Positions 7,913 to 64,000 of a stretch of 64,000 bases of DNA are shown here, piece by piece. The stretch's first letter is position 1. Each line of letters opens with the position of its first letter. Source of the DNA: Nymphaea colorata (Eukaryota; Streptophyta; Magnoliopsida; Nymphaeales; Nymphaeaceae); assembly GCF_008831285.2 (NCBI RefSeq), contig NC_045147.1, forward strand, positions 16,656,854-16,720,853, in the 5' to 3' direction. Position numbers and translations under genes: made by a program. Under the pieces are notes generated by a model. The model ran no database searches and was not told the origin of the DNA. It saw only the letters and a program-made list of their open reading frames with translations.

Positions 7913-7990
7913 ATAACTGGTTGGGTGGTCGGGTTTGCAGGTCAATGAGAGCCCGACCCACAGTTCGATTCCTATAAGTTCTATTTCTAT
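7913..7990 (+). mobile_element. tRNA-like/SINE-like head
   Basis: TAACTGGTTGGGTGGTCGGG (A-box-like) is followed by CAGTTCGATTCC (B-box-like, 7961-7972). The counterpart in copy B is at 35,428-35,490. No acceptor stem pairing is evident, so this is not called a tRNA gene. Confidence 0.4.
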
Positions 7991-8828: not shown

Positions 8829-8966
<138 letters not shown>

Positions 8967-9091
8967 TTATTTAGAGTCTAACCAGATGCAGATAAATGGT
9001 TTAGAAAAATACATGAAAAACAAAAGGTGGAAACTGATAATAGATGGTGAAAATGCCTATCACGTTTTCTTGTTAACCATTCATGATGGAC

Positions 9092-9141
9092 CAAACAACT
9101 CTAGTTAGATGGCCCAAACAACTCTAGTTAGATGGCTGAGT
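9092..9141 (+). repeat. 25-bp tandem duplication
   Basis: The unit around CAAACAACTCTAGTTAGATGG occurs twice in a row. It is absent from copy B, so it arose after the segmental duplication or was lost there. Confidence 0.65.
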
Positions 9142-9761
9142 TACATCAAACCTGAACGTTTGATGGTCACCCAAATCTTCCCTACCCTCTCTCTCTCTCT
9201 CTCATATCCTTCCTCTCCCCTTCTTTCTCCGACAACCATGGTGACTCCCCTTGCCGATGATGGCAGGTTCGCCGAGGCTCCGTAAGTGGTGCCACCCAGC
9301 AGAGTATCAGTGGGTTCACCAGAAACCTGCTAGGGCTCCACTTTTCCTCCACCCATCATCGAGTTGAGAGTTTGGGGCATGTATTAGATTAGTTATCTTA
9401 CCTCTAACAGCTTTTCCGAATATTCGAGGGTCTACAGTTGCTGCTTTGGATCAATGGAAGCATACAAATCCTAAACTTCTTTCGTTTATTTTTAATGGTA
9501 GAAAGCCAGGTTTTATGTCATGTTCTTGATAAAAAGGAGTGAATCATGTTGCTTCTTGCATTGCCGCTCATTTAACATACTAATACTGCCATTCCAAGCT
9601 ATTATTTAATTCAGGTGAATCACTAATGCCTTTCCCAAGAAAGTCTCAATGGTGGAATTGATGAGGTACGTTTGATTTGAACGCTAACAATAGACAATAG
9701 ACAAGCAAGTAAAGAATATATGGAGGATGGGTACTAATCATATAACCTCACATTAAGTCTT

Positions 9762-10400
9762 TTGAGCCATATAGAATGAAACAACATATGTATGACATCA
9801 AACCTCTTGGGAGGGTCATTAATCACAAAGTGCTTCTGAACATTCATGACATTTGCTTGCAACTTCAAGTATGAATGTTCAAAATGTTAATCAGAATCTC
9901 TTTAAGTTTGGGTATCTTTTGAACTGGAGTTGGAACTGAAAACTGATACCAATCTAGAACATCACTGAAGGGGAGCACGTAGCCATGGGGAATCGGCACC
10001 GGCACGCAACCCGCCGGTATGGATTCAGTGAGCCTGGGACTGGCGACTTCATACCCACTTGGGCAGAGACAATACTTGGTGTTCATCATGTACTCCTTGT
10101 AGTTTTGGCCTATGGCCAAGCATTGAAACATTTGAATTTGGGGGTCCTTGCCATCCCACTATTGAAAGAGGAACTTTTTGACGGAGCCATGACTGCCTCT
10201 TGCAAAAAATGCTAACATTCTTTTTGAGGAAGGTGGAGTCGGGGTTCTGACGACTGTTGGAATACAAAACCTGAAGTTGAATTCAGGGAGCGGTGCATCC
10301 TTTCTCGGGTTGAAGCCTTCTGAGATGTTGGCATTGTACAGCACCTTGATCAAACTTTTGACGAGCTCTTGCTTTACAGTGACATATGGTGCCAAAACAT
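9762..10400 (-). pseudogene. Exostosin-family (GT47) glycosyltransferase pseudogene, 3' half
   Basis: Read on the minus strand from about 10,400: NANISEGFNPRKDAPLPE, then LAFFARGSHGSVKKFLFQ, an in-frame TAG, WDGKDPQIQMFQ, then [36 protein letters not shown] and, in another frame, [19 protein letters not shown]. These match, in order, the C-terminal half of plant exostosin-like GT47 glycosyltransferases (Golgi type II membrane enzymes acting on cell-wall polysaccharides). A stop codon, a frameshift and the missing N-terminal exons make it non-functional. The remnant in copy B (39,770-40,081) keeps a shorter part. Confidence 0.85.
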
Positions 10401-10640
10401 GACCATAAAGAGCCCAATTCATATTGATATTGACTTCGTAAATCAAGATATATAAAATGTATTCAAGACAATAAGTGCAACCTGCACCCCTATATATATA
10501 TATATATATCTGATCAAACTTTTGAGGAGCTCTTGCTTTACAGTGACATATGGTGCAAAACATGACCACAAAGAGCCCAATTCATATTGATATTGACTTC
10601 GTAAATCAAGATATATAAAATGTATTCAAGATAATAAGTG

Positions 10641-10672
<32 letters not shown>
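10348..10672 (+). repeat. Tandem duplication of about 164 bp, each unit ending in a TA run
   Basis: Unit one starts at 10348 (GATCAAACTTTTGACGAGC) and unit two at 10512. Both run into a (TA)n stretch (10,493-10,510 and 10,645-10,671). The duplicated sequence includes the edge of the GT47 pseudogene exon, so the duplication followed loss of function. A slippage or TA-mediated origin is inference. Confidence 0.8.
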
Positions 10673-10673
<1 letters not shown>

Positions 10674-12525
10674 GCTTAAATGCAAAATTAGAGCACTTTT
10701 CCTTTTTTGTGATCTAAACTTACTTACTGCTATGGTCTCATGAATAAATTGATGAGAAACATACATTAGGTAAATTATTTTTTGACTTTAATCATGTATT
10801 GATAAAACATAAAATTGAATGGCTAATATAACATCCAAATTTTGACCATGGAAAAATCTTCATTGTTTGTAAAAACAACTAAAAATAAAACATGTTTTAT
10901 ATCAAATTAGTTTTTATAAACAAATTATGATGGTTTTGTTTTAGAAAAAAATTGGAGGGTCTGGTTTTTATCCCTAACCTAGCAGACTATAATCTACCAA
11001 TTTTCCCTATGTTTTATATTGGATCTATAAATTTGTGAAAGGACGTTTTAGGTGCATTTAGAACGCAGATATGTTAATTTCTCGTGCTGCTTTTAAATTA
11101 TGAAACAGTTGCAATTTTTTACTATTTTCTCAATCGATTTAACAAAAAAAAACATTCTAAGAATTATATTTATATGGGACTTCTCAAGATGGTGAAATGA
11201 GGCCTTTTGGAAAGCAGTATTTTAATCATTTGGGCATGGTGAAGAGAAAGAACTGGGCGAGTAGTGAAGGAATGCAGGATTTCTCCACTCCTTGTGGAGA
11301 TTGTGGCGATGGAGGGTCCCCCCTTCTTTGGAGGAGGAGGAGGGGTGGTTAGAGCGACACCCATTTGGTGGGTGTGTGGGCAAGTTTGCTATATAGTCGG
11401 AGGTGGGGCAGGAGCTGAGGCAGAGGGAGAAGAGGGTCTTCAAGTTGGAGGTGCTGAGGAGGGTGAGAGAGGCGGTGGACTCCAATGCTGAGGCTGCTAC
11501 CATTATTGCTTAGGTCTTGTGGGGAGCCTCACCGTGGACCTTGGTGGTGGTGGTGGTGGTGGTGGTGGAGAAGGAGGTGTCTGGTTGCCAGTGGCCGGTA
11601 CGTAGTTCAGGTCATTTTTTTTTGCACATATGCGAAAGGGAGAGCGATGTGTAATTGTAGGTTCAGAATTATCTAGATCTGTAAATTGGTTTTAAATATT
11701 AGAGGATTTGCCATGTGAATTCATTTTTTCCTATTGAATTGCATCTTCGAGATGTGTAGCAGTGAAATAGTCGCCTCTCCTCTTGCTTTTTGTACCGGTC
11801 ATGTTCTACAAGAGAGGCACTTTTTGTTTTCCTTGGACATGAATTATGAAAGTTAGTGCTTTTGGGATCCAGAAGTCTCTTGCAAAAGATGGATTAGAAA
11901 CAGCATGCTGCGCTCTTTTAACATTTCATGCCCTTTTTGTACAAAATGTAGACATAAATATCGGTCATCAAAATAATAGAAATCTACCTAAAGTGGCATT
12001 GCAATGCAAAAATAAGATCTTAAGAGTCAGTAACATCATTTTAAGCTTATAAAACTCACTTTTATGTTGATTTCCATAGTGTAAAACATAATGATTAATA
12101 CAGTTTGAGTTAAAATAATAAGTGGTTGTTATGTATATATATGCTTTGTTAATTTTTTTTGCCTTTCATATTGATACAGACCTACACCCATTTGTACATG
12201 ATTTGTACTTTTACTGAATTAGTTTTTTGTTCAAGTTACCAAACAAGAACACCATTAATCTAAATCCAAACAGTTCTAGTGATAGTAAAGATGAGAATGG
12301 AAGCAAGTATGCAAACAAATTATGGTTGTGTGCACACACATGTGTGTGTGTGATAGAGACAGAGAGACAAAAAACTAAATTTAATTTATTATTGTGTCCA
12401 ATTTATTACATGATGATACATAGCATCATAAGTAGGATTCGGTTAATGAGCATCAACATGGTTGAAAGTGGGAAACAACGTGGTTTGCTTAGGCAGTTTG
12501 GATGGGCTCGACAATGAGAGAGTAG
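10673..12525. other. Intergenic, no gene recognised
   Basis: AT-rich DNA with one GC-richer island (about 11,260-11,620) containing a (GTG)n run near 11,541-11,567. In one plus-strand frame the island reads VLRRVREAVDSNAEAATI, which looks protein-like but is short and interrupted by stops, so I treat it as a possible unidentified coding relic. Confidence 0.35.
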
Positions 12526-12529
12526 ACAC

Positions 12530-12760
12530 AGTCTATGGACTCATGGTCCAAGACACCAACAACTATTTTCATAGTCGTACATGCACTGGGAGACTCTCGC
12601 AATGTTGAGAGTCACGTTCATAAAGGAACGAGAGAAGGCGGCCTGTTGTTATTGTTGTTGAGCTGAGAGCAGCTCCTTGTTCAGCCTCCTCCATGCATCC
12701 CTTAGAAAGTTCCTTATGCGCTATTGTGCTTGCTCCTTTGCTACCCTTGTCTCGATCTGT
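12530..12760 (-). pseudogene. Terpene synthase last-exon fragment
   Basis: The minus strand reads VAKEQAQ*RIRNFLRDAWRR, NKELLSAQQQ* and FSRSFMNVTLNIARVSQCMY in one frame, matching the terminal exon of plant terpene synthases (pattern VAREHI..LI..WK.MN, then FSRSF...NLAR..QCMY..GD). Internal stops show it is dead. The same exon is at 27,255-27,490. The fragment lies directly beside the cytochrome b561 pseudogene, whose parent has no TPS neighbour here, so the two were brought together by rearrangement. Confidence 0.75.
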
Positions 12761-13053
12761 TAACGATAAAGTTGAAAGGCAATCGTTTTATAGAGATTCA
12801 AGGAAAGAATCTCATCAAGATCAATCAAAATTAATGATAAAGGAAAAAAAATCTTTCCAAAAAAATCAGATTTAGTTTTTCATGTTTATCATTGCCAAGA
12901 TTATAGTGTTAACAATAGGGTTGAAAGTCATCCGTTTTAGAGAAATTAAAGGAAAGAATCTCAGTAAGATCAATCAAAATTAATGATAAAAGAAAAAAAA
13001 ATCTTTCCACAAAAATCAAATTTAGTTTTTCATGTTTATCGTTGCCAAGATTA
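12759..13053 (+). repeat. 149-bp tandem duplication
   Basis: Units start with GTTAAC at 12759 and 12908 and share AAAGGAAAGAATCTCA, TTAATGATAAA and TAGTTTTTCATGTTTATC. They differ at a dozen or so positions, so the duplication is not recent. No coding potential seen. Confidence 0.8.
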
Positions 13054-13204
13054 TAAGAACTTCAACTATTTAAGTTCGTTATTTACATTGTGTAACCAAG
13101 GCACATGGTGGCCTTAAGTGGTGAAAACCCATGAAAAAAATCTTTTCATTGTTGGTTTTTATTTGTTTTGCTTTTTTTATTTTTTATTTTTTAACTTACT
13201 ATCA

Positions 13205-13930
13205 AAGAGAGGATATCCGAAAGTATGGGGACAACCGAAGACTTTAGAGCCATAGGTTGCCGATTGGTTGGCTATGGGCTGTGGATTTTTCTACTGCTAG
13301 CCGGCACAGATGTTTTGTTTTTTACCGCTTATCCATATGAAGAATTAAAAGACAATTTGTGCTGAAACTTGTGACAGGGTAAGGGGAAATCCCCCATCCG
13401 TGCTTTTGTTGTCTTCGGGTGGTGGCTGTTGGGTTTTTTATCATTCTGGTATCCCGGATTGTCAATTCCCCGGAGGCAACAAGCGGTGCCTTGGCATGCA
13501 CTTATGGGTATTACAATCTTCCTTTTGACAATTTGCACAGCAGAGACGAGGATGGCTGAGAAGTTCATATTTCAACGCCTGGTTCGTGAAAGGGAAGCAT
13601 ACTTGGTGAATTTCCTCGGACTCACGGAACTTCTCTTTGGTGCTGCAGTAGCATTCTGTGTTACCCATTAGGTGAAGAAGGAAAAACTTCTCTTAGAAAA
13701 TTACTTTCCAAGGACTTTGCTCTTGTTCCTTGATATGTAAATTACAATTGCTGGTGTTTGACACCAATCCATTGACCTATTTACTTCCCCCAAAACGTCT
13801 CCCTCGACTTTGTTGTTCAATTCACTTTACTGCATTTAGTCGTTGGAGTAGCCAATTGTACTTTGGCTCATGCACACGGCAAGCAATATATATTGCACAA
13901 GGTCTGAGGTTAAGACGATTATGAGTCCGC
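13205..13930 (+). pseudogene. Cytochrome b561 pseudogene (last exon plus flanks)
   Basis: This is a partial copy of 52,285-53,155: part of intron 2, exon 3 (about 13,420-13,671) and the 3' flank. Exon 3 stays open to the TAG at 13,669-13,671 and keeps WHALMGITIFLLTICTAET, including the helix histidine. Two lesions matter. About 145 bases of the end of intron 2 are missing, and the acceptor GGGCAG of the intact gene reads GGGTGG here. Exons 1 and 2 are absent. It cannot make a six-helix protein. Confidence 0.9.
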
Positions 13931-14014
13931 AAGACAAAAGAAATACTTTTTAGATGTAATGCTATCTCGAAACCATTGTCAGCTTTCACAACTTACAAGG
14001 AGATAATTTGCTTG

Positions 14015-14693
14015 TGAAATGATGTGCGAATCTTAGGCACTTTTTTTTCAACTTAATGACAATTGCAAGTTCCAAGTTTGTGCAGACATTAGAATAAGAG
14101 AAAATGCCCGCTTTCCTCCAGTACTTGTGACAGAAACTGGGTAATTGAATTGAGCCCTTCAAGGGCTTGAGACTGACCATCCAGGGGCTGCCTCTGTTTA
14201 TCCAATGAAACCGACGCAACATTTTCAATATCATCTGCTTTGTCTTGAAGGCTCTTCATCTGCAAGGACATGCTATCGCCAACCTGATATATTTCCCTTT
14301 GAATTTCCAGGGTTCCCCTCTGCAGCTTTGCAATCCCCTGATCCAAGCTCTCATAAGACTCACTAAGGAATGCCCTGCTGGAACTAAGCCCTTCTTTCAT
14401 TTTTTCTTGAGCTTGTAGTACCGCTGACTGTGAAGCAGCTATCTCTTTGGACTGCTCAACGACGGCTTTTGATTTGTCCAACACCTTGCCTATGTGGTCC
14501 TCAACAACTCTAGATGTACGAACCAGCATCTCAATTGTAGTTAATGAATCATGAATGCTGTCAGAATCTTTTAGTAATAAATCGGAGTTTTCCTCTATAG
14601 CCTCCAGTTTCTCCTCTACAAAGCTGGCTGACCTTTGCAACTCGTTCACCAACCTCTCCGTTTTCCGCTTGAATGCTTCAGACCTAAAGAGAT
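14015..14693 (-). pseudogene. GEX1 exon 2 fragment, left copy
   Basis: A partial copy of the intact GEX1 exon 2 (54,486-55,073) with a little intron 2 below it. It still reads openly from RSEAFKRKTERLVNEL to QFLSQVLEES, a coiled-coil-rich stretch, with a small in-frame deletion around 14,528-14,540 where the intact gene encodes QTEE. No other GEX1 exon follows. The reading frame extends upstream into antisense TOP1 sequence, giving a 217-residue chimeric open frame (14,089-14,742). There is no evidence that it is expressed. Confidence 0.9.
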
Positions 14694-16770
14694 CCAGATG
14701 GAACACCGCTAAGAGATCCAGATGGAACACCGAAAAAATCATTGGCGCCTGAATCGTATTGATACACTTCTATCTATTCTGGACATTCTTTTATTATTCG
14801 CTTTTTGCACAGGTAGGAGAACCTTAACCTTTTGTTGGCATGCAGGCTAATGAAGAAAATTGCATCATGTAAAGAAAGAATAGAAAAGATAGATAGGGAT
14901 ATAAAAACTAAGGAGGAGATGAAAAATGTTGCCTTGGGTACATCAAAGATCAATTATATGGATCCTCGGATATCTGTTGCGTGGTGTAAGCGTAATGAGG
15001 TTCCTATTGAGAAGGTGACAACAATTTCCATCCTCTTTTTGGTCTGTCTTTCTATTTTACCTTACTGATCTGGCTGCGCTGTATATGATTGCGGATTTTC
15101 AACAAGTCACTTCTGGCCAAGTTTGCATGGGCCATGGACGTGGAGCCTGAGTACAGCTTCTGATTTATGAAAATCTTGAAGGTACCACAGAAAATTTCAA
15201 GACACAAATATAAATCCCTCATGATGCAGATCGAAATTTAGAGTCCCCCCTTCATACGCATCAACAATGTGATTCTTTCGTTTGGAGAAAATTCTTTGGT
15301 GTTTGCTCCATGGTTGAGGCCAACCCATGACCAGTAGCTGGAGACAAGGAAGCCTTCAATCGAACATTGTATCGTGCGACTCCTTTCTCTACGTCCCAAA
15401 ATATGTATTGGCATTAGCTACGTTCAAAGTAAAGGTCTTCTCTTTCGTTATTTCTTTGTGTCTGTCCTTTTTTTTCCCACTCCCTTGGGTGCTTATGGCT
15501 GCCTCAACTTGCCCCAAGATGGCATAATTGCATCCCTGTGGTTCTCTCTCAAATGAAAAATTTTGAAACTGGAATGTATTTTTGTCACATAACTAATTCT
15601 GTTGCCTTATGAAATATGCAATACTTGAGGTTGGCATTTGATTAATTCTTTCAAAACTCAACTTTCTATGATCCGCATGACAACGAAGGTACGGGTCACG
15701 AGGGGATGAATTCGACGCGATAAAAGGTGAGTTTAACCAACTTGAACGCGAGATGGGTACCCGCTCATATGATTGCCCACTTCGTGATTGCTCACCAGCG
15801 TCGTCCTTTGAACGTTCCTTTGCTTCAATTTTGTGAAGTCTCGGACAGTGTCCTCATCTTGGTCGATGGTGTCTGTAGTCACTTGGCGTCTGTGTGTGTC
15901 TAAGCTTGTGAAGAAGTTGAAACTTTCATATAAAATTTGTTTGGAAATTCGAAAAAACTAGACGGTTACGTCAGAGATAAAAACTAGACGCTTTAATTTT
16001 GATGTTTAAAATGTATCTTTTTGCAATCTAACCTTATTGATGTGAACGTGATATGTAAGAATAGGTTATTAAATTGATCACTTGTTAGACTTTAATAGTA
16101 TTTTTATAAAGAAAAGATGAATCCCACCGTACTAATACTGCCACTAATCCCAAGTTGGATCACACCCTTCTTTAGATTAAGTTGGGAAAAGTTGAACCAA
16201 ATTTTCTTCTGCTAATGGAAACAGATTCAATTGTCACTAGCAACTTGAACACTTTTCGTTTGCTTCTCCGGAGAATGAGGCTAAAGTTTTAACCAGTTGG
16301 AATGAAGAAGGAAATCCTCACCGCCCGAGTGAAAGCTGAATCTATTGGTGCTTGGATGAACCCGCAATTCATGTCAACTAAAACCCAGCTGTGCCGCCTT
16401 CCCTAAGCAAATTTTCAGCTGGCTTTGCCATCAAGCGTGGCTTGAAGATTCAGTTGCAGCACCGTGAGCCAGATGCCATGGCTATTCATCACATCTGGTT
16501 TTGATGAGATCAAGGGACTTGAATCCAGATCTTTCACGTTCTTACGCTAGTTATTCCCCCCTTGTTCCGTTTGTCTTTATGGCACATGCCCGACCTTCCA
16601 TTTCTGATGATGCATTAATAAGGGTTAGGTGAGAAGTTCTCTCCACTAGAAACGGTTTGCTTGAGACAAAGCTACCAGGCTTGGTCCGGGGTATGTAGGT
16701 TTAGGGTTGGTTTAGAACCTCGGTGTAGTCTCATGATATACTCTTCAACTCAAGTATCACACATGCCAAC
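14535..16770 (+). repeat. Large palindrome, left arm
   Basis: This arm is repeated in inverse orientation at 16,872-19,105. Outer to inner it carries part of the GEX1 exon, the TOP1 3' end, the downstream flank of TOP1 (matching 60,120-61,130) and about 640 bases of unrelated origin. Only scattered single-base and run-length differences separate the arms. Confidence 0.95.
14708..15163 (+). pseudogene. TOP1 3'-end fragment, left arm
   Basis: A copy of the last three TOP1 exons (parent 61,131-61,600, minus strand). It begins inside the exon encoding [17 protein letters not shown], continues through the exon at about 14,848-15,016 encoding [16 protein letters not shown] and [19 protein letters not shown] (catalytic tyrosine present), and ends with [19 protein letters not shown] and TGA at 15,161-15,163. 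The acceptor of the last intron reads TGATTGCGG where the intact gene has TGATTGCAG, so the last exon could not be spliced normally. It lies inside the left palindrome arm. Confidence 0.9.
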
Positions 16771-16871
16771 ATTTGTTGTTTAAAAGTTTATGACCAACCC
16801 TAAACCTACATCGAGTGTGATCCAACTTGGGATTGTTGGCATGTGTGATACTCGAGTGTGATACTCGAGTT
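16771..16871. repeat. Palindrome spacer with short internal repeats
   Basis: About 100 unpaired bases separate the arms. The spacer contains repeats of motifs from the arm ends (GTTGGCATGTGTGATAC, GATACTCGAG, GTGTGATCCAACTTGGGATT), so it looks like a patchwork formed when the inverted copy was made. Confidence 0.8.
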
Positions 16872-18475
16872 GTTGGCATGTGTGATACTTGAGTTGAAGA
16901 GTATATCATGAGACTACACCGAGGTTCTAAACCAACCCTAAACCTACATACCCCGGACCAAGCCTGGTAGCTTTGTCTCAAGCAAACCGTTTCTAGTGGA
17001 GAGAACTTCTCACCTAACCCTTATTAATGCATCATCAGAAATGGAAGGTCGGGCATGTGCCATAAAGACAAACGGAACAAGGGGGGAATAACTAGCGTAA
17101 GAACGTGAAAGATCTGGATTCAAGTCCCTTGATCTCATCAAAACCAGATGTGATGAATAGCCATGGCATCTGGCTCACGGTGCTGCAACTGAATCTTCAA
17201 GCCACGCTTGATGGCAAAGCCAGCTGAAAATTTACTTAGGGAAGGCGGCACAGCTGGGTTTTAGTTGACATGAATTGCGGGTTCATCCAAGCACCAATAG
17301 ATTCAGCTTTCACTCGGGCGGTGAGGATTTCCTTCTTCATTCCAACTGGTTAAAACTTTAGCCTCATTCTCCGGAGAAGCAAACGAAAAGTGTTCAAGTT
17401 GCTAGTGACAATTGAATCTGTTTCCATTAGCAGAAGAAAATTTGGTTCAACTTTTCCCAACTGAATCTAAAGAAGGGTGTGATCCAACTTGGGATTAGTG
17501 GCAGTATTAGTACGGCGGGATTCATCTTTTTTTATAAAAATACTATTAAAGTCTAACAAGTGACCAATTTAATAACCTATTCTTACATATCACGTTCACA
17601 TCAATAAGGTTAGATTGCAAAAAGATACATTTTAAACATCAAAATTAAAGCGTCTAGTTTTTATCTCTGACGTAACCGTCTAGTTTTTACGAATTTCCAA
17701 ACAAATTTTATATGAAAGCTTGAACTTCCTCACAAGCTTAGACACGCACAGACGCCAAGTGACTACAGACACCATCGACGAAGATGAGGACACTGTCCGA
17801 GACTTCACAAATCGAAGCAAAGGAACGTTCAAAGGACGGCGCTGGTGAGCAATCACGAAGTGGGCAATCATATGAGCCGGTACCCATCTCGCGTTCAAGT
17901 TGGTTAAACTCACCTTTTATCGCGTCGAATTCATCCCCTCGTGACCCGTACCTTCGTTGTCATGCGGATCATAGAAAGTTGAGTTTTGAAAGAATTAATC
18001 AAATGCCAACCTCAAGTATTGCATATTTCATAAGGCAACACAATTTGTTATGTGGCAAAAATACATTCCAGTTTGAAAATTTTTCATTTGAGAGAGAACC
18101 ACAGGGATGCAATTATGCCATCTTGGGGCAAGTTGAGGCTGCCATAAGCACCCAAGGGAGAGGGGAAAAAAGGACAGACACAAAGAAATAACGAAAGAGA
18201 AGACCTTTACTTTGAACGTAGCTAATGCCAATACATATTTTGGGACGTAGAGAAAGGAGTCGCATGATACAATGTTCGATTGAAGGCTTCCTTGTCTCCA
18301 GCTACTGGTCATGGGTTGGCCTCAACCATGGAGCAAACACCAAAGAATTTTCTCCAAACGAAAGAATCACATTGTTGATGCGTATGAAGGGGGGACTCTA
18401 AATTTCGATCTGCATCACGAGGGATTTATATTTGTGTCTTGAAATTTTCTGTGGTACCTTCAAGATTTTCATAAA

Positions 18476-18932
18476 TCAGAAGCTGTACTCAGGCTCCACG
18501 TCCATGGCCCATGCAAACTTGGCCAAAAGTGACTTGTTGAAAATCCGCAATCATATACAGCGCAGCCAGATCAGTAAGGTAAAATAGAAAGACAGACCAA
18601 AAAGAGGACGGAAATTGTTGTCACCTTCTCAATAGGAACCTCATTACGCTTACACCACGCAACAGATATCCGAGGATCCATATAATTGATCTTTGATGTA
18701 CCCAAGGCAACATTTTTCATCTCCTCCTTAGTTTTTATATCCCTATCTATCTTTTCTATTCTTTCTTTACATGATGCAATTTTCTTCATTAGCCTGCATG
18801 CCAACAAAAGGTTAAGGTTCTCCTACCTGTGCAAAAAGCGAATAATAAAAGAATGTCCAGAATAGATAGAAGTGTATCAATACGATTCAGGCGCCAATGA
18901 TTTTTTCGGTGTTCCATCTGGATCTCTTAGCG
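18476..18932 (-). pseudogene. TOP1 3'-end fragment, right arm
   Basis: Mirror image of the left-arm fragment, in the same orientation as the intact TOP1 gene. It ends in TGA at 18,476-18,478 and carries the same destroyed last acceptor (GG for AG) and the same CTCGGATATC variant next to MDPRIS. These shared differences from the intact gene show that one damaged fragment was later duplicated in inverse orientation. Confidence 0.9.
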
Positions 18933-18949
18933 GTGTTCCATCTGGATCT

Positions 18950-19105
18950 CTTTAGGTCTGAAGCATTCAAGCGGAAAACGGAGAGGTTGGTGAACGAGTT
19001 GCAAAGGTCAGCCAGCTTTGTAGAGGAGAAACTGGAGGCTATAGAGGAAAACTCCGATTTATTACTAAAAGATTCTGACAGCATTCATGATTCATTAACT
19101 ACAAA
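18950..19105 (+). pseudogene. GEX1 exon 2 fragment, right arm
   Basis: Encodes RSEAFKRKTERLVNEL to about DSDSIHDSLTT and then stops at the palindrome boundary. Upstream is the same duplicated linker (GGTGTTCCATCTGGATCTCTT twice) as in the left arm. Confidence 0.9.
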
Positions 19106-19114
19106 CTGGAGGCT

Positions 19115-19970
19115 ATGATTTCTACACTTCATTTTGCGTATCAATCTTGGTAACATCTAAATTAACATTCATTAGCAGCAAAATAAGAGGTCATAAAAAT
19201 TTGTCTCCAAAGATCAGCTTATAACTCATGAAACGGAAACCATAATCTTACTTGCAGCACTTTTCGTTCTTCCTTTGTAATTTCCCGGCCGTTGAAGTAA
19301 ACTTCAGTGTTCCCATTGCTCGCCTTCGCCTGGAGTTTTCCTCCAATAGTCAACTTAGAACTTGTGATCATATCAGGCTTTCTACCCTCCTGTTGTTCAA
19401 CATCATATGCATCCCAAACAAATCAGGAATTCAGTGTCAAAATAGAAACAAAAGGAAATGCATTTTTGAAGCATAAGAAAAGAGAAACTCACCTTCCCCA
19501 GAACCTGAGTCCTTATCGTACCAGTATCCCCCTGGCTTCAACCTTCTTAGGGGTATGGGGCAGCACTGCAACTCCACCAATTCTTCCCGACGAAGTGGTC
19601 TGTCGTTGACAATGATCTGCCCGGAACGCAGTTGCTTGGAATGGCACTCAATCTCTGCCTTCATGATTTGCTTGATCTCCAAAGGACAGTAAAGCTTGTG
19701 CAACAAGGTCGAAGGTCTGCCAAGCCTCGACCTTTTTGATTCATCAATTGGTTGCCCAATGCAAGTAATACACTTCCTTCCTTGAGGCATCGAAACCATG
19801 GCCTTGAGCACACAGTTGCCACAGTACCTAGCTCCACACGCCAAGCAGGACAATGTTCCCTTGAAGAAAACTCCTCTCCTGCACCAGGAACAGATGTGTT
19901 TCTTTCTTGGCTTACATGAGACACCACGATGACGAGATCCACCATCAGTGAATTCGTGGGAGGACGAATC
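19115..19970 (-). pseudogene. XLG pseudogene, 3' part (exon 2, intron 1, end of exon 1)
   Basis: Copy of 45,150-46,025 in inverse orientation. It covers part of intron 2, exon 2 (about 19,256-19,393), intron 1 and the end of exon 1 with the cysteine-rich region ([21 protein letters not shown]). One A is missing just before the exon 1 donor, shifting frame, and several residues conserved in the intact gene differ. The copy is cut at 19,970 by a copia element and resumes at 25,552. Confidence 0.93.
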
Positions 19971-20651
19971 TGTTGGGTCGGGTCCAGCCTCAAAAGAGGA
20001 CCCGACCCGGCCCGTCACTTAAGTGACGGGCGGGTGAAGGAGAAGGCACCCGATGGTGCCCCTCCCTCTCACGACGCCTCACACGTCTCTCTCTCTCTGT
20101 TATTTTTTTTGGGGAAAAAGAGAAGGGATCTTGTGGCTGCTCATAGAGGAGAAGGAGAGGAGAAAGGCAAGGAGGAGAAGAAGGAGAAATCGCAGCAAGG
20201 TGCGTGGGTCGATTGGCACGCTAAGAAGAAAGAGGAAAGACAAAGAAGAAAGAGAAAATGAAGGGAGTCTTCATTGAGTGATTTCTTTCTTGAATCTTTG
20301 GGGCTCTTTCTTTCATTCGTATAAGAGATTGTTATTGCTCTCTTGAGTTCACTGTTTTTCTTAAAACAGTAGGGATATTATTGCTCGTGTATTTGGCTCC
20401 CTTTCTTGATATATAGAAAGTCTCTCTTGCCCGTGGTTTTTTACCCCATTATTGGGGGTTTTTCCACGTAAATTGGTGTCTCCTTTTTCTTGCATCTCTA
20501 GCATATATTTTGATATATATTGCTGCAACATTGGTGTTGGAATCTCGATCTTATGCACGCTGCCCTGTAATTCCGTTTTTCAGCAGTTTGTTGTGGTTTG
20601 CCCTATTTTATTGTTGTTGAAGCATTCTTGTTGGGGAACACGACTATAACA
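19971..20651 (+). repeat. Copia 5' LTR (681 bp)
   Basis: Starts TGTTGGGTCGGG and ends CGACTATAACA. The first 60 bases form two adjacent inverted repeats: GGGTCGGGTCC with GGACCCGACCC, and a perfect palindrome centred on CACTTAAGTG (20,010-20,031). Confidence 0.96.
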
Positions 20652-20654
20652 AAG

Positions 20655-20664
20655 TGGTATCAGA
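20655..20664 (+). other. Copia primer binding site
   Basis: TGGTATCAGA, three bases after the 5' LTR, matches the complement of the 3' end of plant initiator methionine tRNA, the usual primer of copia elements. Confidence 0.8.
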
Positions 20665-20729
20665 TACAGGTTAGCACCAAGTTAACACCAGGTTAGCGCC
20701 AGCGTGGTTGTGAGCATTCTTATTAAAGG

Positions 20730-23700
20730 ATGGAGTCGACCCCTACTAGAATGGTCTCTTTAAATGAAAACAATTGGACTATATGGAAAGCGAAAATGGA
20801 AGATTTGCTGTATTGTAAAGACCTGTATGCACCAATTGAGAACCAAAAGCCAGCGAATATAACAGATGAAAAATGGAAGTTATTGGACAGGAAAACCATT
20901 GGCACCATCAGACAATGGTTAGATGACTGTGTTTTTCATTTGGTATCCGCAGAGACGAGCGCGAAGTCGTTATGGCAGAAGTTGCATGATCTTTACGAGA
21001 GGAAAACAGCTGGGAACAAGGCTTTCTTGATTAGGCAATTGGTAAATCTGAAACTTAGAGAGGGAAAACCAGTGTCAGAGCATTTGAATGAAGTGCAGAG
21101 CATAATCAATCAGTTGTCAGCCATGAAAATGATATTAGATGATGAGTTACAGGCACTCTTGTTGCTCAGTTCTCTTCCCGACAGTTGGGAGACTTTAGTT
21201 GTTTCTTTGAGCAACTCCGCTCCAGATGGTGTGCTTACGATGAAGCATGTAACCAGCAGCATTCTAAATGAAGAAACAAGGAGAAAGTCTCTTGGTACTG
21301 GTAGCTCGCAAGTGCTAGTGATGGGAGACAGGGGCAGACAGAAGAACCGTAACAAATGGCAAGACAGATCAAAATCCAGGTCCAAATCAAGACCAAAGAT
21401 GACAGGTAAATGCTTTCACTGTGGTATTCCAGGGCACAAGAAGATTGATTGCAGAAAATGGAAAGAAGAAAAAGAGCAGAAAAAGAAGATTCAAGAGAAT
21501 GTAAAGCCAAAAGAGTACACTGCAGTTGCTTCAGATGATGAGGTAGTGTTATTTTTATCTGAAGAAAATGATTGTCTTACAGTTCAGAATGGTGATTCTA
21601 CATGGATTTTAGATACAGGGGCATCATATCATGCTACACCATGTAGAGAGTTATTCTTATCCTATAGAGCAGGTGATTTTGGAGTAGTTCACATGGGCAA
21701 CAGTGACACTTCGAAGATTGTTGGGATAGGAGATGTTTGCATTCAGACGAGCACAGGATGCAAGTTGACTTTGAGAGATGTGAGACATGTTCCAGACTTG
21801 AGAATGAATTTGATTTCTGCAGGAAGACTAAGTGAAGATGGATATTGTACTTCGTTTAGTCAGACAGGTTGGAAACTTACCAAGGGGGCACTAGTGTTGG
21901 CTAGAGGTGACAGATTTGGCTCTTTGTATGGGATGAAGTCTCGAATCAGTAGTGTGGATGTCAATGCAGTTACTGGTGGTACTTCGTCAGATTTGTGGCA
22001 TAAGAGGTTAGGTCACATGAGTCAAAGAGGAATCGACTTGCTCACCAAGAAGAATTTGTTACCAAAGGCAGATGGTGCACAGATATCTCCATGTGATCAT
22101 TGTTTGGTTGGTAAGTTGCATCGAGTTTCTTTTCAGAAAAAACGCTCTTCAAAAACTAAACATGTTTTAGATTTAGTTTATTCAGATGTATGTGGACCTA
22201 TAAATGTGACATCTAAAGGTGGAGCATCCTATTTTGTTACATTTATTGATGATACATCTAGGAAGGTGTGGGCCTTTACAATGAAAAGCAAAAGTGAAGT
22301 AAGTAGCATCTTCATGACTTTTCATGCAGCGGTTGAGCGCGAGACTGGTAAGAAGATGAAGAGACTGCGTACAGACAATGGTGGTGAGTATATAGCATCT
22401 TCTTTACGAGATTATTGTTTAAAGCATGGTATTAGACATGAAAAGACAGTTCCTTATACTCCACAGCATAATGGAGTTGCAGAAAGGATGAATAGAACAA
22501 TAATCGAGAGAGTTAGAAGTTTGTTATCTAGCTCTAAGTTGTCTAAGTATTTTTGGGTAGAGGCAATGCGTACTGCAGTTTATTTAATAAACAGGTCTCC
22601 TTCAGTGCCTCTAGATGGAGACATTCCACAGAGAGTTTGGTCAGATGAAGAGGTTAAGTATGTTTAATAAACAGGTCTCCTTCAGTGCCTCTAGATGGAG
22701 ACATTCCACAGAGAGTTTGGTCAGATGAAGAGGTTAAGTATGATCACCTCAGAGTTTTTGGTTGCAAAGCTTTTATGCATGTACCTAAAGAACATAGGAC
22801 CAAACTAGATGATAAAGCTATTCCTCTGATATTTCTTGGTTATGCAGATGATGAATTTGGTTACAGGTTATGGGATCCAAAGAATGACAAAATCTACAGG
22901 AGTCGTGATGTTGTCTTCAGAGAGGATCAGACTATTGAAGATGTCATGGGAGACACGAAGTCAGGTATGAATGCTAGTGGTGTTCATGAGCCAACTTATG
23001 CAGAACCTGAAGAACTATCATCTGAGCATGGTGAGACTAATGAAGATGTAGAGGAAGAAGAAAGAGAGACAGATGAGCAGTATACAGATGGCAGCTCTAT
23101 AGAGACTCAAACTGATTCTGAGCATGAGTTGGAGGGGGAGCTTCCTTCGCATTCAGAGCCAATTGAGGAGCAATTGGGTAGAGGTAAAAGAACACGTATA
23201 CCATCTACTAGATATTCTACTGATGAATATATTATGTTTACTGATAGTGGAGAGCCAAAATGCTATGCAGAGGTGCTAGATGATGTGCATAAAGATGAAT
23301 GGATTAAAGCTATGAAGGATGAGATGAATTCTTTATACAAGAATCACACTTTTGATTTGGTAGAGCTACCAAAAGGTAAGAAAGTGTTGCAGAACAAGTG
23401 GGTCTACAAGCTTAAAAATGAAGGTCAAGGCAAGTTGAGATACAAAGCTCGGTTAGTGGTGAAAGGTTTCAAGCAGGAAAGAGGTATTGATTTTGATGAA
23501 ATTTTTTCTCCTGTTGTTAAAATGTCATCTATCAGGGTAATACTTGGTTTGGTGGCTTGTCTAGACTTGAAGTTGGAGCAGTTAGATGTAAAAACTGCTT
23601 TTCTTCATAGAGATCTAGAGGAAGAAATCTACATGACACAACCAGAAGGTTTTGTGGTTGCTAGGAAGAAACACATGGTTTGTAAGTTGAAGAAAAGCTT

Positions 23701-24819
23701 GTATGGACTTAAACAAGCACCTAGACAGTGGTACAAGAAATTTGATGCATTTATGATAAATCAAAAGTATCGCAGGTCAGCTGTAGATCATTGTGTCTAC
23801 ATCAGAGAGTTCTCATCAGGTAGCTTCATTATCTTATTGTTATATGTAGATGACATGCTTATTGTTGGACAGGATTGTCAATTGATTAGCCAATTGAAGA
23901 TCGATATGGGCAAGTTCTTTGATATGAAAGACTTGGGGCCATCACAACAATTGTTAGGCATGAGGATTGCTCGTGATAGGAAGACCAAGAGGTTGTGGTT
24001 ATCACAAGAGAAATACATTGAGAAGGTGCTTAGCAAGTTCAACATGAAAGATGCCAAAACTATAAGTACACCTTTAGCAGCACATTTTAAATTGGAAAAT
24101 GAACAATGTCCTTTTTCAGCAGATGAGAAAGAAAGAATGGAGAATGTTCCATATGTCTCCGCAGTAGGGAGTCTCATGTATGCTATGGTTTGCACACGCC
24201 CAGACTTGGCTTATGCAGTTGGTGTAGTTAGCAGGTTCTTGTCAAATCCAGGCAAGGAGCATTGGGCAGCAGTGAAGTGGATCCTAAGGTATCTGAAAAG
24301 TACTTGTACTTACTGTTTATGTTTGGTGAATCTAATCCAGAGATACAAGGATTTGTTGATGCAGACATGGCAGGTGACTTGAACTCTAGGAAGTCTCTTT
24401 CTGGTTATGTTTTTACTTTTGCAGGGGGAGCTGTATCATGGCAGTCCAGGTTGCAAAAGTGTGTTGCTCTTTCCACTACAGAGGCAGAATATATTGCAGC
24501 AACTGAAGCTTGTAAAGAGTTGTTGTGGATGAAGAGTTTTCTTCATGACATAGGCCTTAGTCAAAAGACCTATGTGTTGCATTGTGATAGTCAAAGCGCT
24601 ATACATTTGGCGAAGAATTCAGCGTTCTACTCAAGGACCAAGTACATTGATGTTAGATATCATTGGATTCGTGATGTGCTTGAGCAGAAATTGATTCAGT
24701 TAGAGAAGATACAGACAGAGAAGAATCCTGCAGATATGATGACGAAGTCTCTACCTAGAGAGAAGCATGACATGTGTAGAGACTTAGTTGGGATGACTGC
24801 CTTTAAGACAGTGTATTAA
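20730..24819 (+). pseudogene. Copia gag-pol, disrupted
   Basis: ATG at 20,730. In order: a UBN2-type gag domain; a CCHC zinc knuckle (CFHCGIPGHKKIDC, about 21,410); protease LDTGAS (about 21,610); the integrase zinc-binding region (HKRLGHMSQRG...CDHCLVGK) and catalytic core (TDNGGEY); reverse transcriptase with LYVDDML (about 23,845); RNase H with VDADMAGD and CDSQSAI; stop at 24,817-24,819. Two lesions break it. An 80-bp tandem duplication (22,583-22,742) shifts frame and brings in TAA at 22,665, and an apparent one-base loss in a T run near 24,320 shifts the RNase H frame. It is non-autonomous as it stands. Confidence 0.95.
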
Positions 24820-24855
24820 TTTTTGTTCATTTTGCAGGTATGATCCCTTTCTTGA

Positions 24856-24871
24856 GGCTGGAGGGGGAGTT
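24856..24871 (+). other. Copia polypurine tract
   Basis: GGCTGGAGGGGGAGT immediately precedes the 3' LTR, the expected site for plus-strand DNA priming. Confidence 0.8.
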
Positions 24872-53227: not shown

Positions 53228-55657
53228 TTAATTAAGAGGCTGCATACGCCTATTCCTTGGCCGAAAATTGTACGTCCGAGAGACAGAATCAGTAACCGAG
53301 TTCTCTCCTTTTTCCTCTGGAAGATGATAATCAGGATCTTGATGGATGTCTTCCTCTTCCAGTATCTCTCGTTTCATCAACGAAACAAGCGCTGTATCAT
53401 CCCCAGTGCATAATGATGTCATGTCATCTTCTGCAAGAAGAAAAACTGAACGTTAACTTCCAACTTAAAGAAAGGGCCATGTAAATACCTGATGATTTGT
53501 TCCCACCATAAGCTCCTTCTATGGCATTCAGTTTCTCTATTACTGTCAACAGCATCCTGTGATTAAGAATTTCATAATCCCTGCAAAGTCACCGCATGGC
53601 ATGTTCAGATATACTGAACTACGTAATAGAAAATGATAGATACATCATAGTACCTAATTCTCACCTGAAACTGAAAACAGAGTACACAATCTGAATCAAG
53701 GCAGCAGATAGAAAGGATAACCGGATTAAGAAGATTTTAGATGAAACCCAAGATTGCTGATCAAGATCATTAGCTCCAATCCGAACTAGCAAGATTTCTA
53801 CAGCGAATACAATGCACAGACCTGCAATTTTGTCATGTTATGGATGACACAACAAGTAAATTCGTTTGAGTCGTTGATAACCATTTTTTGGTTTTCAGAA
53901 GATTTCAGGTTCAACTTAGACACTTATGCTGAACAAATTCACCGGATGTCATGACCATAGAAAATCTCACCAAGGTAAAGCCGTGCTCTAGCACCAAATG
54001 TTTGTTTTGCACTGGTCATCATATAGATAACAAAGACCATGCCTAAGTAGAAGAAAAAAGTTTTTATGGCGCGAGATTCCAATAGAATGGCATTATGCAA
54101 CGAAAATAACTTCTCTAGAGAAGTAAACATGATTGCCTGCTTCTTTTCGAATGCCTCCTGAAAATAGAAATACGTGTATCCGTGAGTAAAACAAGTTTAA
54201 CTTGGTTTTTTCAAGAGAAAGTTCATTCACTGTACAAGAATGAATTGAAGACTAACCTGTGCAGCCAACATGGACACTGAATTTTCAACAAGGCGATCAT
54301 GAGTCTCGTGAAGCTGCTCCTGCCGTCGAAGCAGCTCCTCCTGTTGTTTCTCCCCAAAGTCTGCCAACTTCTGCAAATTGGACCTGCAAGTGAAAAAGAA
54401 TGTGCCAATCTCAGGCACTTTTTTTTCAACTTAATGACAATTGCAAGTTCCAATTTTGTGCAGACTTTAGAATAAGAGAAAATACCTGCTTTCCTCCAGT
54501 ACTTGTGACAGAAACTGGGTAATAGAATTGAGCCCTTGAAGGGCTTGAGACTGACCATCCAGGAGCTGCCTCTGTTTATCCAATGATACCGATGCAACAT
54601 TTTCAATATCATCTGCTTTGTCTTGAAGGCTCTTCATCTGCAAGGACATGCTATCGCCAACCTGATATATTTCCCTTTGAATTTCCAGTGTTCCGCTCTG
54701 CAGCTTTGCAATCCCCTGATCCAAACTCTCATAAGACTCACTAAGGAATGCTACGCTGGAACTAAGCCCTTCTTTCATTTTTTCTTGAGCTTCTAGTACC
54801 GCTGACTGTGAAGCAGCTATCTCTTTGGACTGCTCAAAGACGGCTTTTGATTTGTCCAACACCTTGCCTATGTGGTCCTCAACAACTCTAGATGTACGAA
54901 CCAGCTCTTCTGTCTGCATATCAATTGATGTTAATGAATCATGAATCCTGTCAGAATCTTTTAGTAATAAATCGGACTTTTCCTCTATAGCCTCCAGTTT
55001 CTCCTCTGCATAGCTGGCTGACCTTTGCAACTCGTTCACCAACCTCTCCGTTTTCCGCTTGAATGCTTCAGACCTAAAGACATCACAAAGAGAATTCTTC
55101 ACCGACACTGAGAAAAGAATAAAAGAAATTCAAAACAAAATGAAAGTTGAGCAAAATTTTCAAAACAATGAAAGTTGAGCAATACTCAACTGCAGCTGAT
55201 GGCAAATAGCGTTTGTTTCAAGGAAAAATTGAAGATAGATGTTATGCTGAAATTCATCCAAGTTTTTCAGGCACTTAGCCATGGGAATGGCAGAATCGCA
55301 AGCAGAGAAACCAGGTCTACCGGAATCCTTCTGAAAACAATCACTCAAATGCCATGCTAGCCTAGACTGCTTCTCTTGGTTTCCAATTATTTCACCACAA
55401 CTTGAGAACAGCTTCTGGTAGGCTTCCTGCCAACATGAGTTTGAAGAAACTAATCTTGATTTAGCTTTCTCTACCAACTCAACTCCCTTGGGATTGTTCA
55501 TATTATCCATCGAAAACTCGGCATTCATAATGTTTGACACCATAGGCATCTCTTCAGAATTTGAGGATGTAGAAGAAGAAAACCAACTCCATGAATGGCA
55601 GTTGCAGCAACAAGAGAAAAAAACCAATAACGTTACGATTGGATGAAGGCTACCCAT
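53228..55657 (-). CDS. GEX1: GEX1 (gamete expressed 1), nuclear fusion protein
   Basis: Seven exons on the minus strand: 55,657-55,191; 55,073-54,486; 54,383-54,257; 54,157-53,971; 53,821-53,665; 53,580-53,489; 53,430-53,228. Phases agree and the product is 606 aa, close to the roughly 590 aa of known GEX1. Start: the ATG at 55,657 gives a signal peptide (MGSLHPIVTLLVFFSCC), while the frame upstream has no ATG. Features in order: signal peptide; Cys-containing luminal domain (NSCWQEAYQKLFSSCGE, HLSDCF); long coiled-coil region (exons 2 and 3); hydrophobic segments FFFYLGMVFVIYMM and, in exon 5, CIVFAVEILL and LSAALIQIVYSVF; acidic then basic tail. Known role: nuclear-envelope protein of the KAR5/Brambleberry group, needed for gamete and polar nuclear fusion and early embryo development. 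The first donor is CA|GTTGAG, slightly unusual. Exon 2 is copied in the palindrome region. Confidence 0.94.
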
Positions 55658-61130: not shown

Positions 61131-64000
61131 TCAGAAGCTGTACTCAGGCTCCACGTCCATGGCCCATGCAAACTTGGCCAGAAGTGACTTGTTGAAAATC
61201 TGCAATCATATACAGTACAGCCAGATCAGTAAGGTAAAATAGAAAGAAAGACCAAAAAGAGGATGGAAATTGTTGTCACCTTCTCAATAGGAACCTCATT
61301 ACGCTTACACCACGCAACAGAAATCCGTGGATCCATATAATTGATCTTTGATGTACCCAAGGCAACATTTTTCATCTCCTCTTTAGTTTTTATATCCCTG
61401 TCTATCTTTTCTATTCTTTCTTTACATGATGCAATTTTCTTCATTAGCCTGCATGCCAACAAAAGGTTAAGGTTCTCCTACCTGTTCAAAAAGCGAATAA
61501 TTTAAAAGAATGTCCAGAATAGATAGAAGAGTATCAATACGATTCAGGCGCCAATGATTTTTTCGGTGTTCCATCTGGATCTCTTAGCGGGGGCTTCCCT
61601 TTCTTCGCTCTGCGGAGGTCCTCTTCCAGTGCTTCCAGTTCTTCCTATGATTAGCAACAGAGAAACTTGGTATAATTTGGACAATATATTGATTAACGCC
61701 TGCTAAACTAGCTGCATTTGAACCATGCAAAAAGAGGAAGGGAGAAAAAGAAGGCTAAGTAACCTGTGCTTTGGCAGCCTTCTCAGATAATTTTTCCATC
61801 TGTGCAGCATGTGATTTTGATTCAGCTCGCTGATGATTGCAGATAATTGCAACCTGCAAAAAGAAAAACAATGGATATGGCATGGAACAATGTTAAGCAA
61901 AAGCGTTAGATACGAAAGTGAATCGTTTCATACAAAAATAGCATTCTCACCTTCTTATTTGCAGTTTGATAAGCAGAAACTCTTTCTGCTACAGATTTCA
62001 TTTGCCAGCTACCAGTAGCTTCCTCTTGCCGCAACTAACCACCAGGAGGAGAACATTGAAAAACATAAATGTAAATGAAAAAAAATAAGGTGGGCATGAC
62101 AAGAAAGCTAATAAGGAATTTAGGAGAATAAAAAGGCAACACGCATAGTTCAAGTAGTACTGGGCAGTCTACCTCCGTATCCAATGTGATGGAGGCATTG
62201 TATGTACGGAAAACTTTTGCCGTAAGTCCAGGCATGAGGTTTTTCAAATGTGCATTTAGTTTGGTTGTATCCAGCCGGTCAAAGAGATCATCTCCCTCTT
62301 TCTTACCTGTCCAACAAAAGACATTATAGCAAGGCCCGGACATACATATTACCAAAGACTACCAAAAGGGTGCAAAATCAATCCACTAACCGGCCTTGAA
62401 TCTCCCAATTGCTTCATATACAGGAAGCTCAACTTCTACTGTGTTCCTATACCTGATTGAGTCTTTCCCAAGGAAGTCAAACTGGAAATGAAAAATGTAA
62501 ATTGTTCGATAACTGGTGACAAATCATGGTAGTTGATAGGCATGCAGTAACTTTGTTTATTTAAATATATTGATGTAACATGTTGGATTACCTCAAGTGA
62601 TCTAGGAGGTCGCAATGTAACATTTTCCACTTTCAGAGTGCAACAACCCACGGTATCTGCTTCATCATCATCCTGTGAGAAATAAAACATCCAAAGAAGG
62701 ATTTTCACGAACACATGAGAGATCATAAATGTTGTACACCTAGAACAGCAACAGAAATCACATTACAAAATCAGAAGTCGGCCTGTTAATACCACTTCCA
62801 ACTATCTGGAAGATTTTGTCCATCGACCTAAAGGATATTACAGATGGAGCAGAAAAAGGCCCAGATAAATGGAAAATAGTCTATGATGTGAAAACACAAA
62901 CTTAAACAGAAAATAAGTTGTCAAAGAATAGTAGATTAAAGTAAGTAAATTTTGAAAATGAAATTTCAATTCCAAAATCAGTGTAGCTTATTTATGTGGT
63001 TGAATGCTTGAACCAGAACAAATTTTGTAGATACCCAAAGCTCAGGCATTTGCAATCTTAGAAGTTACATCCTTGTGAAATGGACAAAGGCTAATCTTCA
63101 AGAAGAAAACCATCTTCTCTGTCACAGACGAGGTTTAAGGTGCATGCATCGGACATCAAATGTTACCAAAAATACATGATACATGTTGAAATGAAGCATC
63201 TTAGAGAAAAGGCTTGGTAATGTCCAACCCGATATTGACTAAGTATACCTACACTGAGCACTGCAGTTGCACTCAAATATATATAAGTTGAGACACATTA
63301 TTAAGTGCAATAATTCTTTACAATGCAGAACTTGCTGTTCCCATCTTATACCAATATAAAGTAGCTTTAAGATAGTAATTTAAAAGCATGAGAGCTTCCT
63401 CATTCCAGTGCTGTATGCAGCACCAAAAGTCATATCTTATTTAATGTTGTAAAGAACTTTTCTACCGTTAATGAGTAATCTGATTTCAGCTTACTTCAGA
63501 AAGAAAAGGAAGGGAGAAAAAAGATACAAGAGGAAAAAACTAGAAAAAGGTCACACTTAAAATATAATCTTGCCATACAAAAATATAGCTGTTTTTCCAA
63601 AACAGGACTATCAAATAACACAGACCATGATAAGAGAAAAATCACTGCACCCAAACAACCTAAATGCACTCTCCAAAAACAAAGATTACCTTTTCATTTC
63701 CTGCCCTGAGAGCGAGCTTGTCAATAAGGTAAGTTGCAACTGCTATTTGTCTTTGTGTAATGTCTGTTTTTGGATTGAAATGTTTTGTGTAAGTTTTCCT
63801 TATGTCATCAATGTAGTCCTGCCACAGAAAAGCTCCACTGTGTAACTCCAACAATAACATGCTAAAACAACACACCCTGAATGTCACCAAGACAAATGGA
63901 AATAAATTTAATGAATCATGTGGGAAAATTTTACCTTCAACTTTCTTGCTTTCTCATACTTCTCCTTGTCACTTTGCCCCTTCAAAGAACTGCTAGCCGC
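61131..64000 (-). CDS. TOP1: DNA topoisomerase IB, C-terminal half (cut by window edge)
   Basis: Ten exons visible on the minus strand: 64,000-63,935 (partial); 63,818-63,690; 62,672-62,592; 62,481-62,391; 62,306-62,173; 62,034-61,951; 61,853-61,764; 61,644-61,541; 61,448-61,280; 61,199-61,131. All phases agree, giving 338 aa and TGA. Diagnostic blocks: [34 protein letters not shown] (catalytic Arg), [56 protein letters not shown] (second Arg/Lys region), VAIICNHQR (catalytic His), a coiled linker, then [21 protein letters not shown] with the active-site Tyr, and [19 protein letters not shown] at the end. Known role: nicks one strand through a 3'-phosphotyrosyl bond, relaxing supercoils in the nucleus during transcription and replication. 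The N-terminal half lies beyond 64,000. Confidence 0.97.

What the first reader, a model, noticed from the sequence alone, without database searches (positions are those of the whole stretch)
14535..19105. Natural 2.2-kb hairpin built from TOP1 and GEX1 exon pieces, with intact parents in the same window
Seen: two nearly identical arms (14,535-16,770 and 16,872-19,105) in inverse orientation with a spacer of about 100 bp. Each arm holds the last three TOP1 exons, TOP1 3' flank and about 150 bp of GEX1 exon 2. Intact TOP1 and GEX1 lie at 61.1-64 kb and 53.2-55.7 kb. Known: transcribed inverted repeats of gene fragments in plants, such as chalcone synthase inverted repeats in soybean, are diced to siRNAs that silence the parent genes in trans. 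Inference: this locus may repress TOP1 and GEX1, a gamete nuclear-fusion gene, perhaps in a tissue-specific way.
Basis: partly seen in the sequence, partly recalled or inferred. Interest (0 to 1): 0.88.

Follow-up and report, generated by a model that had tools for sequence, protein, structure and literature searches.

The report
Fold-back scar of copied gene fragments
A water lily chromosome carries a 4.6-kb near-perfect palindrome made of scraps of two nearby genes and one distant locus; its seams look like a repaired DNA break, and nothing in the sequence yet shows that it silences the parent genes.

Summary
The inverted repeat is real: arms 14,535-16,771 and 16,871-19,104, a 99-nt loop, 25 substitutions in 2,216 gap-free sites (98.9%). 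The genome is, by its best matches, Nymphaea colorata. Junctions and loop hold short templated inserts (14-24 nt), four of them inverted, in the loop: the mark of a break repaired by fold-back and serial template switching. The left arm's outer end is continuous with an older GEX1 copy, so this is not a transposon insertion. siRNA silencing of TOP1/GEX1 stays possible (exact 21-mers are shared), but no RNA data could be reached, no parental promoter was found in the copied blocks, exons are not better preserved than non-coding parts, and transcription from either side would run through TOP1's own 3' end in sense before reaching the loop. Best reading: a young break-repair scar, inert or RdDM-marked; 8% for a real silencing locus.

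The parts
14022..14694 (-). Older copy of GEX1 exon 2 and a little intron (parent 54,400-55,084), with a 12-nt in-frame deletion; its last 160 nt are the outer end of the left arm
   Evidence: BLAST 94.3%; 27 substitutions, one 12-nt gap
14535..16771 (+). Left arm
16871..19104 (-). Right arm (inverted)
14540..14694 (-). GEX1 fragment in left arm (= 54,930-55,084); counterpart 18,945-19,099 in right arm
14687..14708 (+). Junction: 22 nt of TOP1 (61,564-61,585) copied once before the TOP1 piece restarts at 61,590
   Evidence: exact matches
14706..16131 (+). TOP1 piece in left arm, TOP1-sense on + (= 61,590-60,122): partial exon, last two exons, stop, 3' flank and ~180-bp high-copy repeat; counterpart 17,511-18,933 in right arm
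   Evidence: exons; Pfam Topo_C_assoc on the parent
15944..16121 (.). ~180-bp high-copy repeat (MITE-like by length and copy number only), also in the TOP1 parent flank
   Evidence: 35 places at 73-79% identity plus 4 short pieces among the 45 matches, in which 40 of 249 first-look candidates were scored
16131..16798 (+). Copy of C5:8,501,398-8,502,068 (95%); its first ~640 nt are mirrored in the right arm (16,873-17,511)
16772..16870 (.). Loop: end of the C5 copy, then four short inverted templated inserts (16,793-16,811; 16,815-16,834; 16,834-16,857; 16,856-16,872)
   Evidence: 19 and 20 nt exact to the arm; 24 nt at 96% to the arm tip; 17 nt exact to C5
19103..19116 (+). Right outer junction: 14-nt templated GEX1 insert (54,987-55,000), then the XLG copy
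19114..19970 (-). Copy of part of an XLG-like gene (= 46,023-45,164), pointing at the palindrome, 5'-truncated
   Evidence: the parent's later ORF 49,320-49,991 has a G-alpha domain; the name XLG is recalled
53231..55657 (-). GEX1 parent
61131..64000 (-). TOP1 parent, 3' part (stop at 61,131; gene continues past the window)

Best explanation
It is a young scar of chromosome breakage. SHOWN: an older, decayed duplicate of the 28-55 kb region lies here; between a GEX1 piece and an XLG piece sits filler DNA read from the TOP1 3' end (about 5 kb from GEX1) and from chromosome C5, followed by the same filler in mirror image; the seams carry short templated copies. INFERRED: a break in the GEX1 copy was extended by microhomology-guided template switching onto TOP1 and then C5, folded back on its own new strand, copied itself out to the GEX1 copy and was joined to the XLG side. 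Since then the arms were partly homogenised by conversion. It carries no copied parental promoter and most likely makes no effective hairpin RNA; low-level Pol IV/RdDM 24-nt RNAs would be the expected product, if any.
For: Templated inserts at the left junction (22 nt), the right junction (14 nt) and in the loop (19, 20, 24 and 17 nt, inverted). C5 filler matched whole only at C5 and in the two arms. Left arm continuous with a GEX1 copy that extends beyond the arm, so not a mobile-element boundary. Uneven arm/arm/parent substitutions: 14,540-15,164 has 15 shared and 2 arm-specific, 15,165-15,943 has 3 shared and 18 arm-specific (Fisher 8.6e-6); C5 part 2/639 against TOP1 flank 18/777 between arms (0.0011). 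XLG copy starts 295 nt after the parent's start codon. GEX1 copy dN/dS about 0.8, rough, some intron included. In yeast, short templated inverted insertions, and paired inverted insertions from one distant locus, form at breaks (PMC11724301, abstract).
Against: The number and order of switches is reconstructed from one genome; no relative without the palindrome was available. TOP1, C5 and the fold-back could be separate events. No RNA data exclude transcription. The Fisher tests compare segments picked after seeing the counts, with segment edges set by hand to a few nt. How rare such palindromes are in this genome is untested (not granted).
Confidence: 0.75

Rival explanations
1. A natural hairpin-RNA locus: the palindrome is transcribed through the loop and diced to 21-22-nt siRNAs that lower TOP1 and perhaps GEX1 mRNA.
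For: Near-complete pairing; exact 21-mers shared with TOP1 (164 of 268 coding tail; 280 of 280 after the stop) and GEX1 (60 of 123); such loci are reported in soybean and proposed in Populus.
Against: No parental promoter in the copied blocks mapped; both arms show TOP1's 3' end in sense to incoming polymerase; non-coding flank is at least as close to the parent (7/777 differences, left arm) as exons (9/423); no Rfam match. Broad silencing of TOP1 or GEX1 would be costly (inference).
Confidence: 0.08
2. The palindrome is a source of 24-nt siRNAs and DNA methylation in cis, perhaps spreading to the TOP1 3' flank in trans, without effect on mRNA. (Compatible with the scar reading, so the odds overlap.)
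For: General behaviour of young inverted repeats in plants (recalled).
Against: No methylation or small-RNA data here; the right-arm-only changes (13 transitions, 4 transversions) are mostly A>G or T>C (11 of 17), not the C>T or G>A of methylation decay (2 of 17).
Confidence: 0.35
3. Assembly artefact: a fold-back SMRTbell chimera or a mis-joined contig.
For: The published assembly rests on PacBio RSII reads (PMC7015852, passages); arms are nearly identical; some arm differences could be polishing errors.
Against: 25 substitutions plus indels between arms; different flanks outside; templated loop and junction inserts; no N in the window.
Confidence: 0.04
4. A transposable element that captured gene pieces (Pack-MULE or Helitron type).
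For: Gene pieces from several loci in one unit with inverted ends.
Against: Left end continuous with the GEX1 copy, so no target-site duplication can flank the unit there; no other place matched the whole unit (40 of 249 candidates scored).
Confidence: 0.03

Closest known systems
Fold-back inverted duplications and templated insertions at DNA breaks (yeast, PMC11724301 abstract; human, PMC3907307 passages)
   Same: Inverted copy with an unduplicated loop, microhomology and short templated inserts, filler from a distant locus in inverted pairs
   Different: Interstitial, 2.2-kb arms, two filler sources, in a plant genome; the sequenced human spacers are 766-70,466 bp long and those cases go with terminal deletions
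Soybean I locus / GmIRCHS (PMC3804491 and PMC13051633, abstract starts in the listing)
   Same: Inverted repeat of gene pieces near identical to functional genes of the same genome
   Different: There siRNAs and target repression are reported; here neither is tested, and no promoter is evident
Populus/Salix sex-region inverted repeats of a response regulator (PMC7465354, passages)
   Same: Truncated gene copies in local inverted repeats, proposed to make small RNAs against the parent
   Different: Tied to a sex-determining region there, with independent origins; a single palindrome without known trait here

Membership tests
Endogenous hairpin-RNA silencing locus | Inverted repeat with long exact matches to a gene of the same genome | tested here: met
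Endogenous hairpin-RNA silencing locus | Promoter able to read through the loop | tested here: inconclusive
   No parental promoter in the copied blocks mapped; plant promoters were not modelled
Endogenous hairpin-RNA silencing locus | 21-24-nt RNAs from the arms and repression of the parent | not testable with these tools
   No read data
Endogenous hairpin-RNA silencing locus | Target-matching exons preserved better than the rest of the arm (expected of a selected locus; supportive, not strictly defining) | tested here: not met
   9/423 exon against 13/956 intron plus flank differences, left arm to parent, Fisher 0.35
Fold-back/template-switch break repair product | Short templated inserts or microhomology at the junctions | tested here: met
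Fold-back/template-switch break repair product | Mirror copy with a short loop | tested here: met
Fold-back/template-switch break repair product | Empty site in a relative | not testable with these tools
   The genome has no relatives in the whole-genome search
Gene-capturing transposon | Defined ends with target-site duplication | tested here: not met
   Left arm end lies inside a continuous GEX1 copy
MIRNA gene | Match to a described microRNA family | tested here: not met
   No Rfam match at gathering scores in 12,000-21,000; a new microRNA is not excluded

The most novel reading that the evidence does not exclude
A break-repair fold-back created a chimeric hairpin gene that targets two unrelated functions (a topoisomerase and a gamete nuclear-fusion protein), expressed in a reproductive tissue of an early-diverging angiosperm: a nascent dual-target silencing locus caught near its birth, with its seams still readable.
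Probability: 0.06. Interest if true: 0.7.

Novelty: new member of a known kind. Interest (0 to 1): 0.36.

Why it matters
Inverted duplication of gene pieces is the proposed raw material of plant hairpin-RNA and microRNA genes. This locus keeps its seams, so it shows how such raw material can arise: by fold-back and template switching at a break, with filler from two loci. If small RNAs were found, it would be a very young silencing locus with a readable origin; if not, it is a clean example of such a structure staying silent.

Tried and rejected
Transposon capture was rejected because the left arm is continuous with the GEX1 copy. Promoter capture through the XLG copy, which points at the palindrome, was considered and weakened: the copy lacks the first ~98 codons and what lies upstream, and a Copia element now splits it. 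Selection on the arms was tested by exon against non-exon divergence and found unsupported. A known RNA family was sought and not found. Five ORFs of the C5 stretch, one of them (L023:4,652-4,900) inside the copied piece, had no Pfam match. A background rate of large inverted repeats was planned from 80 random 10-kb stretches in four requests; none was granted, so how rare the structure is in this genome is untested. Ten paper searches were made; none of the titles and abstract starts listed concerns this locus, and no search joined TOP1 or GEX1 with inverted repeats, so absence from print is not claimed. One search (Nymphaea colorata, small RNA, siRNA) listed 3 papers, none by title a small-RNA survey of this species.
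Full report
WHERE. The window is C10:16,656,854-16,720,853 of a 407.8-Mb genome in 783 contigs. Its GEX1 is 99% identical to 'protein GAMETE EXPRESSED 1 [Nymphaea colorata]', on a 24.87-Mb contig; C10 here is 24.86 Mb. The published N. colorata genome is 409 Mb in 804 scaffolds with 14 pseudo-chromosomes (PMC7015852, abstract and passages). The species is therefore Nymphaea colorata by inference; the contig counts differ a little, so this may be another release.

OBSERVATION. The inverted repeat stands as described. Aligned to each other and to the sources, the arms differ at 25 of 2,216 gap-free sites, or at 28 left-arm positions if gap columns are included. BLAST's 97.6% is lower because it runs through the loop. 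Each arm is, from outside in: GEX1 (155 nt), TOP1 3' end and flank with a high-copy repeat, and a C5 piece. In one search it matches whole only at C5:8,501,398-8,502,039 and in the two arms; two further hits of 64 and 73 bp cover its inner end only.

SURROUNDINGS. The stretch 2.9-14.0 kb is a broken, mostly collinear copy of 28.6-55 kb; the pieces are 82-94% identical, without a steady trend, and two rows (4,525-4,702 and the 72% row 12,531-12,757) are out of order. 13.2-13.9 kb is a cytochrome b561 piece, 14.0-14.7 kb a GEX1 exon 2 piece. Right of the palindrome lies an inverted copy of part of an XLG-like gene (46.0-44.2 kb), split by a Copia element (19,971-25,551). The name XLG is recalled; a later ORF of the parent has a G-alpha domain, its first ORF no Pfam match. 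The parent's start codon is at 43,934 by the open frame and the copy begins at 44,229, so it lacks 98 codons and the promoter. The GEX1 copy has 20 non-synonymous and 7 synonymous changes in the parent's frame (dN/dS about 0.8); some intron is included, so this is rough.

SEAMS. Left: the GEX1 copy joins TOP1 within a shared AAGA; 22 nt of TOP1 are copied, then copying restarts at 61,590, giving a tandem repeat. Right outer: after the GEX1 piece, 14 nt from inside GEX1 (54,987-55,000), then XLG. Loop: the end of the C5 copy, then 19 nt inverted from 16,693-16,711, 20 nt inverted from 16,146-16,165, 24 nt inverted from the arm tip (96%; 19 nt exact to the arm, 15 nt exact to C5, overlapping), and 17 nt inverted, exact to C5. 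Exact matches of 19-20 nt between a 99-nt loop and 2.2-kb arms are not expected by chance (estimate by hand). Short templated inverted insertions, and pairs of insertions from one locus in inverted orientation, are reported at breaks in yeast (PMC11724301, abstract); human inverted duplications show fold-back with short inverted homologies (PMC3907307, passages). The order of steps here is inference.

AFTER FORMATION. Per segment: 14,540-15,164 has 15 changes shared by both arms against the parent and 2 arm-specific ones; 15,165-15,943 has 3 shared, 14 right-only and 4 left-only; the high-copy repeat 11 shared, 1 right-only, 1 left-only and 1 with all three different (gapped, alignment uncertain); the C5 part 21 shared and 2 left-only. 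The contrast between the first two is strong (Fisher 8.6e-6), as is arm-arm 2/639 in the C5 part against 18/777 in the flank (0.0011), though the segments were chosen after the counts were seen. It points to patchy conversion between arms, and perhaps between the left arm and TOP1. The longest arm-identical tract, 490 nt, has P 0.024 under random placement.

COULD IT SILENCE? For: the RNA would pair almost end to end (2,239 pairs, 2,230 near-symmetric, MFE -4,259 kcal/mol). Exact 21-mers: TOP1 coding tail 164 of 268, TOP1 300 nt after stop 280 of 280, GEX1 exon part 60 of 123, either arm (the counts used intervals with intron edges and are superseded). Against: (i) no parental promoter lies in the copied blocks mapped (TOP1 only its 3' end, GEX1 from exon 2 on, XLG from codon 99 on); plant promoters were not modelled. 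(ii) TOP1 reads in sense from outside inwards in both arms, so polymerase from either side meets TOP1's 3' end before the loop, and convergent transcription alone gives no TOP1 duplex (from the sequence; the terminator's activity is inferred; poly(A)-like hexamers at 15,207-15,209 and further in). (iii) Exons are not better kept than non-coding sequence: left arm to parent 9/423 against 13/956 (Fisher 0.35), flank alone 7/777. (iv) No Rfam family and no protein named for the GEX1 copy. No RNA or methylation reads could be searched, so silencing is neither shown nor excluded.

KNOWN KINDS. GEX1 is required for nuclear fusion in Arabidopsis (PMC7586128, title and abstract start in the listing). 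Soybean I locus siRNAs are reported (PMC3804491, abstract start in the listing). In Populus, truncated inverted repeats 'may code for small RNAs' (PMC7465354, passages). This locus works like these only if it is transcribed; by anatomy it is a fold-back, template-switch repair product. I put 0.75 on the scar reading and 0.08 on silencing of the parents; a cis-methylated state (0.35) is compatible with the scar reading.

Noticed in passing
window 19,971-25,551: Copia-type LTR retrotransposon (TG...CA ends, LTRs 681 and 680 bp, about 97.8% identical by BLAST over 693 bp) inserted in the XLG copy with the 5-bp target-site duplication GAATC; ORF 20,727-22,667 has gag, pre-integrase and integrase domains.
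   Followed up: partly
window 2,879-14,694: Broken, mostly collinear copy of 28.6-55 kb, pieces 82-94% identical (one at 72%), two out of order; perhaps several events.
   Followed up: partly
window 15,944-16,121: About 180-bp high-copy repeat inside each arm and in the TOP1 parent flank; the arms lack short duplicated stretches that the parent copy has.
   Followed up: no
window 14,540-16,771: Of 17 right-arm-only changes 11 are A>G or T>C on the left-arm strand, 9 of them in 15,165-15,943; unexplained, few in number.
   Followed up: no
window 33,289-33,602: A second, smaller self-complementary stretch, 316 alignment columns at 90%.
   Followed up: no
C4:6,822,000-6,830,000 (L025): TOP1-like stretches at 78-81% identity to the window's TOP1, a likely second TOP1 gene.
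   Followed up: no
P0154 and P0167 (Nymphaea thermarum): Two short GEX1-like predicted proteins listed with contigs of the same length (323,158), perhaps a split gene model or a fragmentary copy.
   Followed up: no
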